Of a stretch of DNA of 40,607 bases, positions 11,942 to 22,193 are shown one piece after another. Where the stretch lies: assembly GCA_022781925.1 (NCBI GenBank), contig JALESO010000078.1:1-40607 (forward strand), in the 5' to 3' direction. Origin of the DNA: Lachnospiraceae bacterium. Its GTDB lineage: Bacteria > Bacillota > Clostridia > Lachnospirales > Lachnospiraceae. Below the pieces are notes generated by a model. That model was not told where the DNA came from, made no database searches, and was given only the letters and a program-made list of their open reading frames with translations. Positions within the stretch are counted from its first letter, which is position 1, and each line of letters opens with the position of its first letter. The position numbers and the translations under genes were made by a program.

Positions 11942-12116
11942 AATATATCAAGTCCTCCTGTACAGTGAATGTGTAATTGTAATATGTTTTGATACAGATA
12001 ACCAGAGAAAACCAGTATGTTCACTTTGTTTATCAAATGTGAGATGAACAACATGAATGCGGGAGCATTCTTGACATCCGTGTGTAATACTAGCAAAAAT
12101 TGAAATGAAATTCAAG

Positions 12117-12150
12117 AAGGAGATATCAGGACAACCGATATCTCCTTTTT
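12117..12150. terminator. Intrinsic terminator-like hairpin
   Basis: Arms AAGGAGATATC (12117-12127) and GATATCTCCTT (12137-12147) are perfect and are followed on the plus strand by a T-run. Read on the minus strand it lies 110 bases downstream of the histidine kinase gene and is followed by CTTGAATTTC, so it most plausibly ends the two-component operon. The rest of 11942-12259 has no supported gene. Confidence 0.65.
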
Positions 12151-12259
12151 CGAAGCAAATACAAGGGAACTGTGACAAACGTTTTGCACTGAACAAAATT
12201 CAAGTCGAATGTATGTGAGACCCTAAGGAAAATACTTAAATTTCTATAAGTGGTGAGTG

Positions 12260-13618
12260 CTAATTAGTTGTTTCAGAGGAAGCGTTGTCTTGATAAATCG
12301 GAAAGTGTAATTGTATCTCATAATGCTCTGCATCTGTTTGCTGTTCGACTTTTCCGTTCATTTTCTGCATCATCAATGCGATGTTTTTTACTCCGATTCC
12401 GGTGCTGGAGGAATAAGAGGTTGTGGCAATTTTATTTCGGAATGAAATGATCAGGTATCCGTTTGCCAGTTTGGTGCTGAAGAAAATGGGTTCCTGTCTG
12501 TCCGCATATTTTTGAATATTGGAAAAAATATTATTAATAATGCGGTTCATATATTCCATGTGGATACGAACGCTGACTTCCTGTGGAAATAAATCGCCCG
12601 TGCATATCTGAAAGCCTTCCTGTGACAGATACAGATACAGTTCAGAGAGATAATCTCCCAGAGCGTATTCGGCAGATTCCCAGGGCTCCAGAAGAATCGG
12701 TTCCTCTGCGGAGGCAAGAAAATATTCAAATAGCTGGTCGGAGAGTGTGCGGATTTCCTGCGTTTTTACCAGGGCACGCTCGGCATATTTCAGTTTGTCT
12801 GCTTCTGTGGGCTGCCGTTTCAGGAGTTCCAGATCGGTCAGAAGGGTAGCGAGTGGCGTGCGCAGATCATGTGCCATGCCGAGCACCAGTCGCTGCTGAG
12901 CCTGTTTCATTTCCTGTTCATGCTGTTCTTTTTCCAGTAGGGAAGCGCGCATAGCTTCAATGCCGGAGGCAAGGTATGCGATTTCATCATCGCCAGTGAC
13001 GGGAAAGGCTGTATATAAATTACCATTTCCGATGTCAGAAAGTCTGATATTTAAGGCATGAATACGGTCAATATCTTTTTTCTGAGCAGGAAAAAGGATG
13101 AGCACAGAGGCGAGAATTCCCAGTAGCCCGGCACTTAGAAGGAGAAGAAGATAAAATTTATGTTCAAATCCTTCATAGATAAATACAGAAGCCATCCCAT
13201 CTGAAAAAAAGATTTGGTGTGAGTTGCGATCAGCATAATTTAACAGATCCCACAGTTGGGTTGTTGCGGCAGGAGAGAAATTGCGTCCAGAAATGTTGCT
13301 GAATACAAACATGTTGTCTTTTTGAATGAGCATATTGAAAAGATTATGTTTGTTCATCCATGTAAGAAACTGCTGGGTATCGGTAGACGATATGTTATTG
13401 TCTGTTACCCAAGTTTGGAAAGAATACATGCGGGATGTTTCTATACGATACAAATAATCGGAGTTCCTGAAATGAAAGTCCAGTATTTTTATACCGAACA
13501 GAAAAATAACAACAAAAATACTTACTCCAAGTAGCAGGGAGATGAAAAGCCGTCCAACAATTTTATGATGATAAGTTTTTGTCGTTTTTATGGATGACAT
13601 AGAATGATAATTATCCAT
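12260..13618 (-). CDS. Sensor histidine kinase (HAMP, two transmembrane helices)
   Basis: This 452-residue kinase has a membrane helix at about 21-44 and an extracytoplasmic sensor region at about 45-154. A second helix lies at about 155-177, followed by a HAMP linker (DIDRIHALNIRLSDIGNGNLY). The HisKA H-box is MAHDLRTPL with phospho-accepting His250. The HATPase domain has an N-box (NRIINNIFSNIQKYA) and a G-box (GIGVKNIALMMQKMNG). The sensor domain is extracellular and not of a family I recognise. The start overlaps the response regulator by eight bases and has AAAGGGG upstream. The ligand is unknown. Its likely target, by position, is the divergent secreted-protein gene at 14498. Confidence 0.92.
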   Translation of the reverse strand: MDNYHSMSSIKTTKTYHHKIVGRLFISLLLGVSIFVVIFLFGIKILDFHFRNSDYLYRIETSRMYSFQTWVTDNNISSTDTQQFLTWMNKHNLFNMLIQKDNMFVFSNISGRNFSPAATTQLWDLLNYADRNSHQIFFSDGMASVFIYEGFEHKFYLLLLLSAGLLGILASVLILFPAQKKDIDRIHALNIRLSDIGNGNLYTAFPVTGDDEIAYLASGIEAMRASLLEKEQHEQEMKQAQQRLVLGMAHDLRTPLATLLTDLELLKRQPTEADKLKYAERALVKTQEIRTLSDQLFEYFLASAEEPILLEPWESAEYALGDYLSELYLYLSQEGFQICTGDLFPQEVSVRIHMEYMNRIINNIFSNIQKYADRQEPIFFSTKLANGYLIISFRNKIATTSYSSSTGIGVKNIALMMQKMNGKVEQQTDAEHYEIQLHFPIYQDNASSETTN

Positions 13619-14315
13619 AGCGATACCCCTTTCCCCAGACAGTCTGGATCAGAATCGGTTTTTCTGGCTTTTCTTCGATTTTAATTCGTAATCTGCGGAT
13701 ATGCACCATGACTGTATTTGCGCAGGAAGTAAAAAAAGGTTCTTTCCAGATGCTTTCATACAAATTCTGGATAGAAAAAATTTTTGTTGGATATTTCAAA
13801 AACAGATAGAGTAATTCAAATTCTGTATCGGTTAGTTCTACTATAGTTCCGCGGACGGTTACCTGAGGTGGATTTACAGTCAGTATAACATTGTGCCGTT
13901 GTAATGTTTCTGTTGCGCTTGTGCTTTGATAATCAGAACTGTGATTTTTGTAAAATTCGTTTCGGCGTAAAAGTGCCCGGACTCTGGCCACTAGTTCCAC
14001 ATAAGAAAATGGCTTGGTTAAATAGTCGTCCCCACCGGCATAAAAACCATGCACCTTATCACTTTCTGATGCTTTGGCTGTCAGAAATAAAATAGGTACA
14101 TAAGAAAAATTTCGTATTTTCTGGCAGGTTTCAATACCGGAAATACCAGGCATCATAATGTCAAGAATAACCAGCGATACGAAAGGCATAAGTTTTTCCA
14201 GAGCCTGAGTACCGTTGATTGCTTCCATAGTTTGGAATCCTTCATTTTGTAAGATGCTACAAATGTTTTCCCTGAGATCATTATCGTCTTCTACAATTAA
14301 AATAGTTTGTTTCAT
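13611..14315 (-). CDS. OmpR/PhoB-family response regulator
   Basis: The receiver domain has acidic residues near the N terminus (VEDD), the phospho-acceptor Asp52 in VILDIMMPG, a FLTAK motif and the YLTKPF Lys. The C-terminal winged-helix Trans_reg_C domain includes ELTDTEFELLYLFLKYPTKIFS and the HIRRLRIKIE recognition region. An in-frame ATG lies further upstream at 14333, but AAGGTG is six bases before the ATG at 14315, giving 234 residues. It is the first gene of a two-gene operon with the kinase. OmpR-family regulators commonly bind direct repeats spaced about 10-11 bases; such repeats lie at 14398-14435, between this gene and the divergent gene. Confidence 0.94.
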   Translation of the reverse strand: MKQTILIVEDDNDLRENICSILQNEGFQTMEAINGTQALEKLMPFVSLVILDIMMPGISGIETCQKIRNFSYVPILFLTAKASESDKVHGFYAGGDDYLTKPFSYVELVARVRALLRRNEFYKNHSSDYQSTSATETLQRHNVILTVNPPQVTVRGTIVELTDTEFELLYLFLKYPTKIFSIQNLYESIWKEPFFTSCANTVMVHIRRLRIKIEEKPEKPILIQTVWGKGYRYG

Positions 14316-14397
14316 TTTCATCACCTTAAACAAAAATATTTTTATGATGTAAATATAGTAACATAAATTTTTAGATATATGTTTTATTTTAATGCGA

Positions 14398-14451
14398 TTT
14401 AAGAAAATGTAAGATTTGTTAAGTGGTGTTGTAAGAAATTTCTGCTATATT
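14398..14451 (+). promoter_or_regulatory. KTAAG direct repeats and extended -10: likely response regulator binding region and promoter
   Basis: TTAAG (14399-14403), GTAAG (14409-14413), TTAAG (14419-14423) and GTAAG (14431-14435) occur on the same strand. The first three have exact 10-base periodicity and the fourth is offset by two. An extended -10, TGC-TATATT (14443-14451), follows; the expected -35 position has no TTGACA-like box but overlaps the repeats, as in activator-dependent promoters. Spaced TTAAG sites are known for the OmpR-family regulator CiaR, so binding by the adjacent response regulator is a reasonable inference. Confidence 0.6.
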
Positions 14452-14497
14452 AAAATCAAGCACAGTGCTTATATAAATAATTGGGAGGGGACATATA

Positions 14498-15307
14498 ATG
14501 AAAAAATTAATTATTTGTACGGTTTTGACAGTAACATTGGGTGTGGGAAGTAATATTACAGCTAATGCGACAGAAGTATTTTCAAATTATAAGGAAACGG
14601 TTACTATAGGTACAGATGAAAAAATTACTGTTAATTATAGTGCAGACCAAATTGCTGAATATACTGAAAATCAGCTTAAGGAAGAAGAAGTAATAATTTC
14701 CTGCGAACCTAAAAAACATACATTTTTTTTTAATGAGGATACATTCAAATATAAGATAAATATACCAGATGATGGATATCTTGAGTATGTATGCGATGAA
14801 GAAAATGAAAATGATCAAGCTGTTTTAATATATGATTCCGATCAGTCGTTGGTTGGATATGTAGAAAATATTATTCCTGAAAACGACAATATTTCTGTTG
14901 AATTATCTTTAGAAGACAATGTGGTAACGCAGCGTTACATATACCCAAGAGCAAAGAATTTTGCTGTTTCAGATGAAGATGTGGAAGTTGGAATAAATAT
15001 TGTTGCTACTCAGGCTGAAAAGTTTTCTACATATTTTACAGAAGGTAAGTGGATTACTAGGTCTGGTGAAGTTAGTTTATCTTTATATCGGAGAATTATA
15101 TTTGAAACTGTTGCACAAAGAAATGCGGCATGGTCAACTGTAAATTTTACGTTTAATGGTAGTGTAAATTGGAAAAATACGGCTGGAATGAAAGACCAAT
15201 TTATGTGTCATTCATATTTTGCAAAGTCAAAAAATCCCTGGAATTTAGAACCGGGACGTCCAAATGTCGGATATGCAGAAACGGTTAAAAAAAGGTGTAA
15301 TCCGTAA
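14498..15307 (+). CDS. Secreted protein with DUF2599-like C-terminal domain
   Basis: This 269-residue protein has a clear signal peptide: a KK start, a hydrophobic core and an ANA-T cleavage site after residue 24. The mature part has four cysteines (69, 99, 237, 267). Its C-terminal about 90 residues contain AAWSTVNFTFNG, QFMCHSYFAKSKNPWNLEPGRP, VGY and the terminal CNP, a pattern I recall from the DUF2599 family of secreted proteins of unknown function; this is from memory, not a search. The gene is clearly AT-richer than most of the window, suggesting acquisition. A strong GGGAGGGG precedes the ATG. The next gene encodes a membrane thioredoxin that could form its disulfides, and a two-component operon diverges from it. 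An antimicrobial or signalling role is possible but unproven. Confidence 0.72.
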   Translation: MKKLIICTVLTVTLGVGSNITANATEVFSNYKETVTIGTDEKITVNYSADQIAEYTENQLKEEEVIISCEPKKHTFFFNEDTFKYKINIPDDGYLEYVCDEENENDQAVLIYDSDQSLVGYVENIIPENDNISVELSLEDNVVTQRYIYPRAKNFAVSDEDVEVGINIVATQAEKFSTYFTEGKWITRSGEVSLSLYRRIIFETVAQRNAAWSTVNFTFNGSVNWKNTAGMKDQFMCHSYFAKSKNPWNLEPGRPNVGYAETVKKRCNP

Positions 15308-15322
15308 AAAGAGGGTGGTTAA

Positions 15323-15970
15323 GTGAAATGGATATTTCCTAAAAGAGTGAAATCGATATTTAATATTTTATCAATCGTTTATATTTTTTTTAGATGTTGT
15401 TTCGGTTCCTGGGCAATGGATATGAGAGATGAATATCCGACAAGAGGATATCTTATAGATGAATGGAGTTCATCTATACCGTATATTATTTCTGCACTTG
15501 TTATTGCACTCTGTATCATTGCTAACTGTGTAAAAAAGGAAAAAGCACGTATAGTGTTTAGCATTGTTGGGCTATTTTTTGTTGTATTTGGATATATATG
15601 CACGGTGTTTGAAACTGTTAATTATTTAGATATAAAGAAGACATATGAGCAGGAAAAGCAAACAGTAATTTCTGTTGATTTGAATGAATTAGATTGTATA
15701 TTAAAAAATAATATAAATCAGTATGTTTATATTGGGCGGGATTCCTGTTCTGTATGTCAGGATGCTTATCCGTTGATTGAAAAATATGCATCTACAATAT
15801 CAGAACCTGTTTATTATTATAATACGGAGCAGGATCGATATGATAATAAACAGGAAATGAAACAAATATTAGATGAAATAAATGTCGATGAGGTGCCGAC
15901 AGTTTTAAGGTTTGAGGATGGTGAAGTAAAAGAATATACAGGTGATTCGTTATGGGAACTGGTACGGTAG
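15323..15970 (+). CDS. Membrane-anchored thioredoxin-like protein (bacteriocin accessory-type)
   Basis: This 215-residue protein has three hydrophobic segments (about 12-31, 51-70, 77-99). Basic loops place the N terminus and the KKEKAR loop inside, so the C-terminal domain faces outside. That domain is thioredoxin-like: VYIGRDSCSVCQDAYP with a Cys142-x-x-Cys145 redox pair, and DEVPTVLRFEDGE supplying the cis-Pro loop. The pattern resembles PedC/BrcD-type bacteriocin transport accessory proteins but with an added membrane anchor. The GTG start follows GAGGGTGG closely, 15 bases after the secreted-protein gene, so the two form an operon. The inferred job is disulfide formation or repair in the four-cysteine partner; an immunity function is an alternative. 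Confidence 0.72.
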   Translation: MKWIFPKRVKSIFNILSIVYIFFRCCFGSWAMDMRDEYPTRGYLIDEWSSSIPYIISALVIALCIIANCVKKEKARIVFSIVGLFFVVFGYICTVFETVNYLDIKKTYEQEKQTVISVDLNELDCILKNNINQYVYIGRDSCSVCQDAYPLIEKYASTISEPVYYYNTEQDRYDNKQEMKQILDEINVDEVPTVLRFEDGEVKEYTGDSLWELVR

Positions 15971-15979
15971 AGAAAAATT

Positions 15980-16038
15980 AAGAAAAATATACTACACTTG
16001 AAGCAAGAAAGACGGCTTTGGTGTAGTATATTTTTCTT
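15980..16038. terminator. Bidirectional intrinsic terminator
   Basis: Perfect 18-base arms (15980-15997 and 16021-16038) run from AAGAAAAATATACTACAC to its complement. A/T-rich tracts at both outer ends provide T-runs in both directions. It closes the plus-strand secreted-protein/thioredoxin operon and the convergent minus-strand araC-family gene. Confidence 0.85.
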
Positions 16039-20618: not shown

Positions 20619-21125
20619 ATGAGTGAACATGAAATCAGTCAGGATATCCTGATCGCAGAGTATGAAGCGGTATATTATTATGTGTTATCACTTTGTCATA
20701 ATTCATCCGAAGCAGAAGATATTACACAGGAAACTTTTTGCCGGGCGCTGTATAAAAAGACGGAGTTTAAAGGGAATTCCAGTATTTATACCTGGTTGTG
20801 TGCTATTGCCAGAAATATTTGGTTGAAGAGATTGAAAAAAGAGAAACGCAACGTATCGGATGAGGTTCTTTACAAAGAACTGGAGTGGAATGGCGAGAAC
20901 GTTGAATCAATGATCATAAATCAGGAAACGTTGAAAGTCATTCATAGAATTCTTCATACAATGGACGAACCGTACAAAGAGGTGTTTTCCCTGCGGACGT
21001 TTGGAGAACTTCCATTTCGGGATATTGCGGATTTATTTGGAAAGTCAGAGAGCTGGGCGAGGGTTGTGTATTATCGGGCAAAGCAAAAAATATTAGACAA
21101 ATGGAAGAAAGAAGGTGGCTTTTAG
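20619..21125 (+). CDS. ECF-type RNA polymerase sigma factor
   Basis: This 168-residue protein has a sigma-70 region 2 (YVLSLCHNSSEAEDITQETFCRALYKK, then WLCAIARNIWLKRLKK) and a region 4 helix-turn-helix (FRDIADLFGKSESWARVVYYRAKQKIL). It lacks regions 1 and 3, as ECF factors do. GGGGGTG lies ahead of the ATG. The gene is directly followed, with one base shared between its stop and the next start, by a zinc-finger membrane protein of the anti-sigma type. It probably directs its own promoter at 20543-20571. The stress signal is not predictable. Confidence 0.93.
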   Translation: MSEHEISQDILIAEYEAVYYYVLSLCHNSSEAEDITQETFCRALYKKTEFKGNSSIYTWLCAIARNIWLKRLKKEKRNVSDEVLYKELEWNGENVESMIINQETLKVIHRILHTMDEPYKEVFSLRTFGELPFRDIADLFGKSESWARVVYYRAKQKILDKWKKEGGF

Positions 21126-21814
21126 TGTCTGAAAAAAATAAAATCAATCAGATTTCCTGTGATATGGTTCAGGATTTGCTGCCATTATATCAGGATGGAC
21201 TTCTTCGGGATACCACAAAAGATGTAGTGCGTCAGCATTTAGAGCAGTGTTCGACGTGTAGATGTATATACGAACAGTTAAGAGTGCCTGTTGTTTTTGA
21301 AAAAAGTGAGACCAAGAAAAGAGCTGACCGATTTCAGGCTATGGTGAAAAAGAACCGGAAAGCTGTGGAAAGTAAAATAGCTGTCGGCTGTGTGATTTCT
21401 GCAGTAGCTACACTTGTTTTCTTTTTTGTAGTATTTTGTGTACCTGTGATTCCAACAAACGAGAGCAATATGCGAGTGAAAGATGTATACTGTGTGAAAG
21501 AGAACGGCATTCAAAAAGTATATGTATATTGTCAGTGGCCAGATAGCAGGAGAAGCGCAATTTACAGACCATCATTTGTATTGAATGAAGATGGTTCTGC
21601 AACGATGAAAACTGCAAAAGAGTATAAGCTGACCATCGCAGATAAAGTGAGTGGCCGTGCGGAAACCTACAATAATGAATTTTATGGAAGTGCATATGCG
21701 GAGTTGGATACTTCATGCAAAAGCATTATTTATGATGAAAAACAGATATGGTCGGAAGATGATTATACCAGAGAAACACCAGAATATGTGCAGGATTGGA
21801 TTGAAAATGAATAA
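21125..21814 (+). CDS. Anti-sigma factor with zinc-binding ZAS/zf-HC2 domain
   Basis: The cytoplasmic N terminus carries SCDMVQDLLPLYQDGLLRDTT and the Zn motif His38-x3-Cys42-x2-Cys45, typical of ZAS anti-sigma factors. One transmembrane helix follows (about 85-108) and an extracytoplasmic domain of about 120 residues of no recognised family. The open frame runs back to 21101, but GTG at 21125 follows AAGGTGG at seven bases and shares one base with the sigma stop codon, indicating tight coupling. It likely holds the preceding sigma factor inactive until an envelope signal acts on the outer domain. Confidence 0.87.
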   Translation: MSEKNKINQISCDMVQDLLPLYQDGLLRDTTKDVVRQHLEQCSTCRCIYEQLRVPVVFEKSETKKRADRFQAMVKKNRKAVESKIAVGCVISAVATLVFFFVVFCVPVIPTNESNMRVKDVYCVKENGIQKVYVYCQWPDSRRSAIYRPSFVLNEDGSATMKTAKEYKLTIADKVSGRAETYNNEFYGSAYAELDTSCKSIIYDEKQIWSEDDYTRETPEYVQDWIENE

Positions 21815-21872
21815 CCGGCAGGTTATAATAATGGCATAGTGTACGTGGGATTTTAAGAAGAGGTGGCTGGTT

Positions 21873-22193
21873 ATGATTGGATTTAGTATTACGACATGGT
21901 GCATTGCTGTTATTATGATAGGTTTGGGAATTTCTTTGCTGAAAGGAAATGATACATTCGTCCATGGAAACGTATTTGATAGAACCAAGGATAAGGCAGG
22001 ATACGCAAAACAACTTGGAAAACCAGTTTTGTTACTTGCATCAGGAATCGCCATTTCCGGAGTAATTGCAGTTGTATTTCCACAGAAATATGCTATGTCG
22101 ATTGTGATAATCTTTCTGCTATTTGTGGTGGCAGTAACGATTGGTCTGTTTTACAGAGTGGATAAATATTTTCGCAATTCCTTGTCTGAATAA
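21873..22193 (+). CDS. Small membrane protein (DUF3784-like)
   Basis: This 106-residue protein has three hydrophobic helices and a middle loop DRTKDKAGYAKQLGKP that resembles the loop of DUF3784-type proteins. Family recognition is tentative. It follows the anti-sigma gene by 58 bases with AAGAGGTGG near the start, so it is probably the third gene of the ECF operon. A terminator at 22243-22296 closes the unit. Its role is unknown; possibly an accessory to the envelope-stress response. Confidence 0.65.
   Translation: MIGFSITTWCIAVIMIGLGISLLKGNDTFVHGNVFDRTKDKAGYAKQLGKPVLLLASGIAISGVIAVVFPQKYAMSIVIIFLLFVVAVTIGLFYRVDKYFRNSLSE

What the first reader, a model, noticed from the sequence alone, without database searches (positions are those of the whole stretch)
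12260..15970. Two-component system facing a secreted four-cysteine protein and a membrane thioredoxin
The kinase and regulator (minus strand) diverge from an AT-rich operon. That operon encodes an exported protein with a DUF2599-like C terminus (ends CNP, four mature cysteines) and a three-helix membrane protein whose outward-facing thioredoxin domain has Cys142-x-x-Cys145 and a cis-Pro loop like bacteriocin accessory proteins. The parts form one coherent unit: signal sensing, controlled export, and a dedicated disulfide catalyst. It could be a bacteriocin-like or signalling system not described as a set.
Basis: partly seen in the sequence, partly recalled or inferred. Interest (0 to 1): 0.72.

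Follow-up and report, generated by a model that had tools for sequence, protein, structure and literature searches.

The report
Bacteriocin-like toxin with immunity-thioredoxin partner
The pair of genes looks like a secreted antibacterial protein of the propionicin SM1 type next to one membrane protein that seems to join self-protection to a disulphide-forming thioredoxin, which gives a likely function to a protein family (DUF2599) that had none.

Summary
In detail: an exported protein with C-terminal DUF2599 (E 3e-17, four mature cysteines), a 3-TM protein with an outward thioredoxin (C142-x-x-C145), and a divergent two-component system. In one Listeria draft contig DUF2599 ends a (frame-broken) RHS toxin gene. 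Of 33 Gram-positive DUF2599 places (window included) 21 have a small multi-TM neighbour (8/177 control ORFs) and 9 a thioredoxin (3/177). I read the small protein, often with a G-x-x-x-D-E loop, as the immunity protein. In the window it appears fused to the thioredoxin; three other loci share that order and two have the reverse. A thioredoxin accompanies DUF2599 in 9 of 18 hosts without DsbB or VKOR and 0 of 11 with one, though phylogeny confounds this. The two-component system is not conserved beside it. Killing, immunity and oxidation are inferred; the window protein's own match to the membrane family is weak; no structure could be predicted.

The parts
14498..15307 (+). Secreted propionicin SM1-like protein: signal peptide about 1-24 (ANA|T by eye), N-terminal module with C69/C99, C-terminal DUF2599 183-269 with C237-H238, K245, W248-N249-x-E251 and C267-N268
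   Evidence: PF10783 E 3.4e-17; alignment A3 of 24 proteins; cysteines; ORF
15323..15970 (+). Apparent fusion of a putative immunity hairpin (TM 9-27, loop G42-Y-L-I-D-E, TM 52-70) and an anchored outward thioredoxin (TM 77-95, C142-S-V-C145, cis-Pro loop EVPT)
   Evidence: TIGR01295 E 1.9e-11 below cut-off; PDB 1zma best for the profile of 8 relatives, E 1.5e-14; profile of four fused TM regions to the stand-alone 3-TM profile, probability 93, E 3.4e-7; window alone probability 11.7, E 0.0026
15323..15559 (+). Putative immunity portion (residues 1-79)
   Evidence: loop motif; E 0.0032 would rank it above the best TM ORF that is no DUF2599 neighbour (0.0075)
13611..14333 (-). OmpR/VanR-type response regulator, divergent from the operon
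   Evidence: PF00072, PF00486; NF033117 E 7e-62 below cut-off
12260..13618 (-). Sensor histidine kinase with an extracytoplasmic loop of about 110 residues (by eye)
   Evidence: PF00512 E 5.9e-9
14399..14435 (+). Possible regulator boxes: [GT]TAAG at 14399, 14409, 14419 (period 10) and 14431, upstream of an extended -10-like TGCTATATT
   Evidence: this triple in 0 of 20000 Markov shuffles, but chosen after seeing it; a general three-copy scan is not significant (437 of 3000)
15980..16038 (+). Transcript-end hairpin after the thioredoxin gene
   Evidence: -26.5 kcal/mol, z -7.07, 0 of 200 shuffles; the simple terminator scan (loop 3-8) does not list it

Best explanation
A contact-free antibacterial cassette. 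The 269-residue protein leaves by the Sec route and its C-terminal DUF2599 domain, the domain of the purified bacteriocin propionicin SM1, harms competing bacteria. The next gene makes a membrane protein that is immunity protein and disulphide catalyst in one chain: a TM hairpin with an outward G-x-x-x-D-E loop protects the producer, and the outward thioredoxin forms or corrects the C237-C267 bond (and C69-C99) as the toxin emerges. A dedicated thioredoxin is needed because the host shows no DsbB or VKOR. Shown by sequence: the shared domain with propionicin SM1, recurrent gene neighbourhood, fusions in both orders, the host pattern. Inferred: killing, immunity, oxidation (rather than reduction or isomerisation), and control by the two-component system.
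For: (1) pLME106 DUF2599 protein: 207 aa; without 27 residues 19,941.8 Da; propionicin SM1 is given as a 207-aa propeptide with a 27-aa signal and a mass printed as 19.942 (PMC5756557, passages); it passes the DUF2599 cut-off, 30 against 25 bits. (2) L070: RHS gene (RHS_repeat E 5e-50, DUF6531) with DUF2599 at its end (tblastn E 3e-7; motif in the other frame), then a 94-aa TM ORF and a thioredoxin; PT-HINT ORF upstream in L022. (3) Small multi-TM neighbour in 21/33 places against 8/177 control ORFs; thioredoxin 9/33 against 3/177. (4) G[IVLFYA][ILVF]xD[EDH] in 11 of 178 small multi-TM ORFs, all 11 (10 distinct) DUF2599 neighbours, though the pattern was read off them. (5) Of 177 other TM ORFs, the ten best rows (eight distinct) against the stand-alone profile are all DUF2599 neighbours. 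(6) Fusions: TM-thioredoxin in window, L020, L023, L095; thioredoxin-TM in L024, L094. (7) Thioredoxin in 9/18 hosts without DsbB and VKOR, 0/11 with one, p 0.005. (8) Later genomes: 3 of 3 with a partner. (9) PedC raises pediocin potency (PMC4919988, abstract and section 8).
Against: No activity, immunity or redox datum for any part of the window. P0002 alone matches the 3-TM profile weakly (E 0.003; not reported by hmmsearch at E 10); the link rests on its relatives L020, L023, L085. Only 11 of the 25 partner proteins (21 small ones and 4 fused) carry the loop pattern. Actinobacterial partners (P0006, L047) and the L030/L037/L031 group do not match the stand-alone profile clearly, so several unrelated membrane proteins may be involved. 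Eight of 33 places show no partner (L012 after dropping a spurious hit, L013, L026, L029, L032, L034, L039, L069). L070's toxin gene is broken between frames and Pfam did not list DUF2599 in its RHS-side ORF. Pseudomonas DUF2599 loci (0/29) lack both partners. With neither DsbB nor VKOR found, how the thioredoxin would be re-oxidised is open. L095 keeps only one cysteine (CPEY). Half of the hosts without DsbB and VKOR have no thioredoxin at the locus, and the host test is confounded by phylogeny. Purified propionicin SM1 is reported active on P. jensenii only (passages).
Confidence: 0.68

Rival explanations
1. The 3-TM part is only a membrane anchor that also recruits the substrate; immunity comes from elsewhere or is not needed. 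The pair is a secreted disulphide protein plus its oxidase.
For: Window P0002 alone is weakly similar to the stand-alone TM family; single-TM anchors suffice in L008, L028, L031.
Against: Places with a stand-alone thioredoxin also have a separate TM protein (L008, L025, L028, L031, L070); 7 of the 8 loci in DsbB hosts keep a small TM neighbour without a thioredoxin; both fusion orders exist.
Confidence: 0.2
2. The thioredoxin is a reductase or quality-control factor, or shields the producer by reducing incoming toxin, so redox itself is part of immunity.
For: CxxC outside the cell in a host without DsbB or VKOR; one copy has lost the second cysteine (L095, CPEY).
Against: Best relatives are bacteriocin maturation proteins (TIGR01295, 1zma), for which a maturation role is published (PMC4919988).
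Confidence: 0.15
3. The exported protein is a wall- or host-directed protein and not antibacterial; DUF2599 is a binding domain, as at the end of Pseudomonas HvnA.
For: HvnA carries a C-terminal DUF2599 (PMC3510237, figure S3 legend passage); Pseudomonas loci lack partners (0 of 29); DUF2599 heads a table of families expanded in mycobacteria (PMC3388012 passage).
Against: Match to a purified bacteriocin; RHS toxin end; membrane partner in 21/33 Gram-positive places.
Confidence: 0.12
4. The two-component system senses the toxin, or its target damage, and drives the operon.
For: Divergent layout with a 164-bp shared region; TAAG boxes; co-loss in the sister species.
Against: Regulator not conserved beside other DUF2599 genes (matches only in L036, L027); boxes not significant in the general scan.
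Confidence: 0.5

Closest known systems
Propionicin SM1 (Acidipropionibacterium jensenii; gene on pLME106 by my match)
   Same: Sec signal, variable N-terminal part, C-terminal DUF2599 with the C-H ... K-x-P-W-N-L-E-P ... C-N signature; followed by a small 3-TM protein
   Different: No thioredoxin beside it; two mature cysteines instead of four; the partner's loop is GDPDVWDF, not GxxxDE; the window protein is 28% identical
PedC/BrcD bacteriocin maturation thioredoxins and bacteriocin transport accessory protein 1zma
   Same: Thioredoxin fold, CxxC, encoded beside a bacteriocin
   Different: 44 bits against a cut-off of 120; joined to a TM hairpin; serves a large Sec-exported protein, not a small peptide (recalled: exported by a dedicated ABC transporter)
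RHS/polymorphic toxin tip-immunity cassettes
   Same: DUF2599 at the end of a broken RHS gene in L070, partner directly downstream, HINT ORF in L022
   Different: In the window the domain has its own Sec signal and no delivery module
Carnobacterium UB5
   Same: Predicted secreted bacteriocin whose best match is propionicin SM1 (34% and 49% in the table; PMC7409045, passages)
   Different: Prediction only; no partner genes described in the passages read

Membership tests
DUF2599 (PF10783) | Score over the curated cut-off | tested here: met
   63.2 bits against 25
Propionicin SM1-type bacteriocins | Sec signal and C-terminal DUF2599 | tested here: met
   signal peptide judged by eye
Propionicin SM1-type bacteriocins | Kills bacteria when purified | not testable with these tools
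   needs bench work
Propionicin SM1-type bacteriocins | Adjacent membrane partner | tested here: met
   15323-15970 follows after 15 bp; immunity role itself untested, also for propionicin SM1 as far as the passages read tell
PedC/BrcD (TIGR01295) | Score over the curated cut-off of 120 bits | tested here: not met
   44 bits
PedC/BrcD (TIGR01295) | Thioredoxin domain with CxxC beside a bacteriocin gene | tested here: met
   the neighbour is bacteriocin-like, not proven
3-TM DUF2599 partner (defined here) | Match to the profile of nine stand-alone members | tested here: inconclusive
   P0002 alone E 0.003 and not reported by hmmsearch; fused group E 3.4e-7
3-TM DUF2599 partner (defined here) | GxxxDE loop between two TM helices | tested here: met
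   G42-Y-L-I-D-E47 between TM 9-27 and 52-70
Polymorphic toxin system | Tip domain on an RHS or similar delivery protein | tested here: not met
   window protein has none; L070 has
Regulated bacteriocin operon | Two-component system conserved beside the toxin | tested here: not met
   matches in L036 and L027 only

The most novel reading that the evidence does not exclude
A single membrane protein is both the immunity factor and the activator of a secreted toxin: it folds the toxin by making its disulphide and at the same time shields the producer, so that a cell cannot make active toxin without being immune. DUF2599 would be a general antibacterial domain, used from free bacteriocins to RHS toxins, with a new family of membrane immunity proteins, and thioredoxin would be recruited, and fused in both orders, only in hosts without their own disulphide machinery.
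Probability: 0.4. Interest if true: 0.78.

Novelty: new variant of a known kind. Interest (0 to 1): 0.65.

Why it matters
It turns a domain of unknown function into a testable antibacterial toxin family. It links one purified but little-studied bacteriocin to RHS polymorphic toxins and to Clostridia. It names candidate immunity proteins that pass no Pfam or NCBIfam cut-off where tested, and it suggests how bacteria without DsbB or VKOR can still export disulphide-bonded toxins. For DUF2599 the paper search found 3 papers and for PF10783 1; the passages read give no function.

Tried and rejected
Rejected: the two-component system as a conserved partner. Rejected as proof: the TAAG boxes, striking but chosen after seeing them; the general scan gave 437 of 3000. 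Rejected: phage carriage as a rule; the deposited phages held no match for two queries, though two IMG/VR contigs do (L016, L017), L017 being the same stretch as L025. The scan of viral contigs with P0002 found nothing; P0001 by sequence found no relative in the 60 other genomes. PDB holds no clear DUF2599 relative by sequence (best E 1.5). Rfam: no match in the window. PHROGs: nothing for P0001, P0005 or P0007; thioredoxin families for P0002. The same site in a third species of the genus (G012) could not be read: its contig ends there. That all partner TM proteins are one family is not shown: the actinobacterial and the L030/L037/L031 groups gave poor profile scores.

Limits of the counts. 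The 33 places include the window. The L012 thioredoxin hit (CEAC, no TM) is spurious and was dropped by hand (10 to 9); the L014 TM hit is an ORF antisense to the likelier 97-aa ORF seen; L027 shows an antisense ORF besides the real one; L016, L030 and L038 have the TM ORF on the other strand, and L010's is short with two TM. The 177 control ORFs are mechanical ORFs of the same loci, not annotated genes. Duplicates were left out before counting: L007 (= L006), L017 (= L025), L011 and L015 (= L026). The residues invariant in A3 are partly forced, because the scan used patterns on K[TN]PWN[IL]EP; rows found by profile only (L003, L004, L094) differ there, and L004 ends near GNP. The first Fisher test used 10 of 18 by a counting slip; the right count is 9 of 18. 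L020's genome was not held, so it is missing from the host test. TM helices were called by a hydropathy window, not by a trained predictor. My impression that two regulators in the other flanks is about chance was not computed.
Full report
Check of the observation. The exported protein P0001 carries DUF2599 at 183-269 (E 3.4e-17, 63.2 bits, cut-off 25), the only such match in its genome. Its cysteines are at 7, 69, 99, 237 and 267, so four remain after the signal peptide. P0002 has hydrophobic segments at 9-27, 52-70 and 77-95 followed by a thioredoxin domain with C142-S-V-C145; the nearest named family is PedC/BrcD (E 1.9e-11 but 44 bits against a cut-off of 120), and a profile of P0002 with seven relatives finds 1zma, a bacteriocin transport accessory protein, as best solved chain (E 1.5e-14). 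The genes lie 15 bp apart, on DNA of 0.31-0.32 G+C, and the pair ends in a strong hairpin (z -7.07).

What DUF2599 is. A protein search of plasmids found DUF2599 in 6 records, among them pLME106 of Acidipropionibacterium jensenii. That protein has 207 residues; without the first 27 its mass is 19,941.8 Da. A review (PMC5756557, passages only) gives propionicin SM1 of the same species as a 207-residue propeptide with a 27-residue signal and a mass printed as 19.942 in a table whose other entries are in Da. From length, leader and mass I conclude that the gene is propionicin SM1; that it is plasmid-borne is recalled, and the primary paper (Miescher 2000) was not read. The protein passes the DUF2599 cut-off (30 bits). 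The review says in its text that the purified protein acted only on strain DSM 20274 (its table adds DSM 20535), so the activity may be narrow. A Carnobacterium protein reported as similar to propionicin SM1 (PMC7409045, passages) shows the same C-terminal motif by eye. In Listeria cornellensis L070 the domain stands at the end of an RHS gene (RHS_repeat E 5.1e-50, DUF6531 E 9.9e-17), in a draft contig where the gene is split over several frames: the match comes from tblastn (E 3e-7) and from the motif in the neighbouring frame; Pfam did not list DUF2599 in the RHS-side ORF. Directly after it come a 94-residue TM ORF and a thioredoxin (E 8.5e-8). In L022 a pretoxin HINT ORF lies just upstream (E 1.5e-17). 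Both settings belong to competition toxins.

The partner. A scan of the genome collection with alignment A2 gave 53 loci. I examined 33 Gram-positive places (window, plasmids, genomes, one viral contig; duplicates removed). A small ORF of 75-150 residues with at least two TM segments lies within 600 bp in 21 of 33, against 8 of 177 other ORFs in the same loci; a thioredoxin-like ORF lies within 1,100 bp in 9 of 33, window included (10 with one spurious hit), against 3 of 177. Eight places show neither. In the 29 Pseudomonas loci examined, many of near kin, neither occurs. I aligned nine stand-alone partners that share a G-[IV]-x-x-D-E-like loop between TM2 and TM3. The pattern G[IVLFYA][ILVF]xD[EDH], read off these, occurs in 11 of 178 small multi-TM ORFs in the loci, all of them DUF2599 neighbours (two are the same gene), but it is absent from more than half of the partners. 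When 177 other TM ORFs were compared with the profile of the nine, the ten best rows, eight distinct genes, were all DUF2599 neighbours. Three of the nine tested with Pfam, two with NCBIfam, the L070 partner and the pLME106 partner P0006 match no family at E 0.01; the L094 partner has three matches, all under their cut-offs.

The fusion. In the window the partner seems to be one chain with the thioredoxin: TM, loop G-Y-L-I-D-E, TM, TM, thioredoxin. Bittarella L020, an uncultured Clostridia L023 and L095 have the same order; L085 has the TM half without a thioredoxin. In Lacticaseibacillus L024 and in L094 the order is reversed: anchor, thioredoxin, then TM helices. In L008, L025, L028, L031 and L070 thioredoxin and TM protein are separate neighbours. 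Stand-alone thioredoxins have one N-terminal anchor, so I read the window's third TM helix as that anchor and the first two as the hairpin corresponding to TM2-loop-TM3 of the stand-alone protein. The four fused TM regions as a profile match the stand-alone profile with probability 93 and E 3.4e-7; the window sequence alone is weak (probability 11.7, E 0.0026) though aligned on the same loop, and hmmsearch does not report it at E 10. Basic residues between helices 2 and 3 put the loop and the thioredoxin on the outer side (inference).

A test on new genomes. A phylum-wide sample of 398 genomes brought 3 DUF2599 carriers besides the window's own. All 3 have a partner: L094 a thioredoxin-TM fusion upstream and a 3-TM protein downstream, L095 a TM-thioredoxin fusion (with CPEY in place of CxxC), L096 a thioredoxin about 0.8 kb downstream and no TM protein seen in the 3.2 kb held. 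DUF2599 is rare: 4 of 397 genomes of the family, 2 of 392 of the order, 2 of 391 of the class, own genome included each time.

A test on hosts. If the thioredoxin serves oxidation, hosts with a general system should not need it. DsbB/BdbC (PF02600) was found in 8 and VKOR (PF07884) in 4 (one of them with both) of 29 host genomes, so 11 have one; the thioredoxin accompanies DUF2599 in 0 of these 11 and in 9 of the 18 without (p 0.005; 0.012 if the CPEY copy is not counted). The window's genome has neither. The idea came from seeing that the Bacillus-type loci lacked a thioredoxin, and all 8 DsbB carriers are of Bacillus- or Paenibacillus-like genera, so phylogeny confounds the test; half of the hosts without either system also have no thioredoxin at the locus.

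The two-component system. Among the other DUF2599 loci held, a regulator-like match occurs only in L036 and L027 and a kinase-like match only in L036. In the sister species G009, whose flanks are about 90% identical, three short pieces match window 12079-12590 (71-92%; two of them lie in the kinase gene), and the rest up to window 16030 is missing; no DUF2599 was found in that genome. The unit was thus lost together there, or the kinase is older than the operon at this site. Full-length kinase relatives in the genus (38% and 30%) stand beside other genes. The boxes upstream of the operon are suggestive only.

Mechanism, with what is shown and inferred. Shown by sequence: the exported protein shares the domain of propionicin SM1; a membrane protein, a thioredoxin or both recur beside this domain. 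Inferred: the toxin is exported reduced, its C237-C267 bond (present in all 24 rows of A3) and C69-C99 are made by the outward thioredoxin, the hairpin with the acidic loop protects the producer, and competitors are harmed at or near the membrane. The conserved C-H, K, W-N-x-E residues could be a catalytic site or a binding surface; without a structure I cannot say. The role of PedC in bacteriocin potency (PMC4919988, abstract and section 8) is the nearest experimental precedent that I saw.

What is known. Paper searches: DUF2599 in 3 papers, PF10783 in 1, propionicin SM1 in 9, with 'immunity' in 6 (listing only), and polymorphic toxin with thioredoxin, immunity protein and disulfide in 0. In the passages read none describes the TM partner, the fusion, or the identity of DUF2599 with the propionicin SM1 domain; subscription papers are largely not covered.

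Verdict. A real and coherent two-gene cassette, a new variant of a known kind. The bacteriocin reading and the thioredoxin coupling are well supported by genomics; the immunity role is likely but rests on relatives; the two-component link is open.

Noticed in passing
L016 2906-5333; L018 5274-7899; L030 5668-7740; L017 3908-9582: DUF2599 and its TM partner sit beside ORFs that look by eye like endolysins or holins (L016, L018, L030) or in a contig with terminase- and portal-like ORFs (L017), as cargo of prophages.
   Followed up: partly
L085 3916-5211: A truncated DUF2599 and a fusion-type TM gene without its thioredoxin half lie among two copies of the same ORF segment, like an orphan cassette.
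   Followed up: no
L017 2300-3335 (= L025 3300-4335): Upstream of the DUF2599 triad lies another exported-looking 249-aa protein followed by a 94-aa membrane protein, perhaps a second toxin-partner pair.
   Followed up: no
L022 5147-5416: Pretoxin HINT ORF (E 1.5e-17) just upstream of a DUF2599 gene that has its own signal peptide by eye.
   Followed up: partly
window 20619-22193: Sigma-70 region 2/4 protein with a zinc-finger anti-sigma-like membrane protein next to a small membrane protein.
   Followed up: no
L035, L040-L046, L048-L068: Pseudomonas DUF2599 loci, some with long HvnA-like ORFs, show neither the TM nor the thioredoxin partner (0 of 29).
   Followed up: partly
L006 and L007: pRGO1 of A. 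acidipropionici carries the same DUF2599 protein record as pLME106; PMC3534718 (passage) says an assembled plasmid matched both exactly.
   Followed up: no
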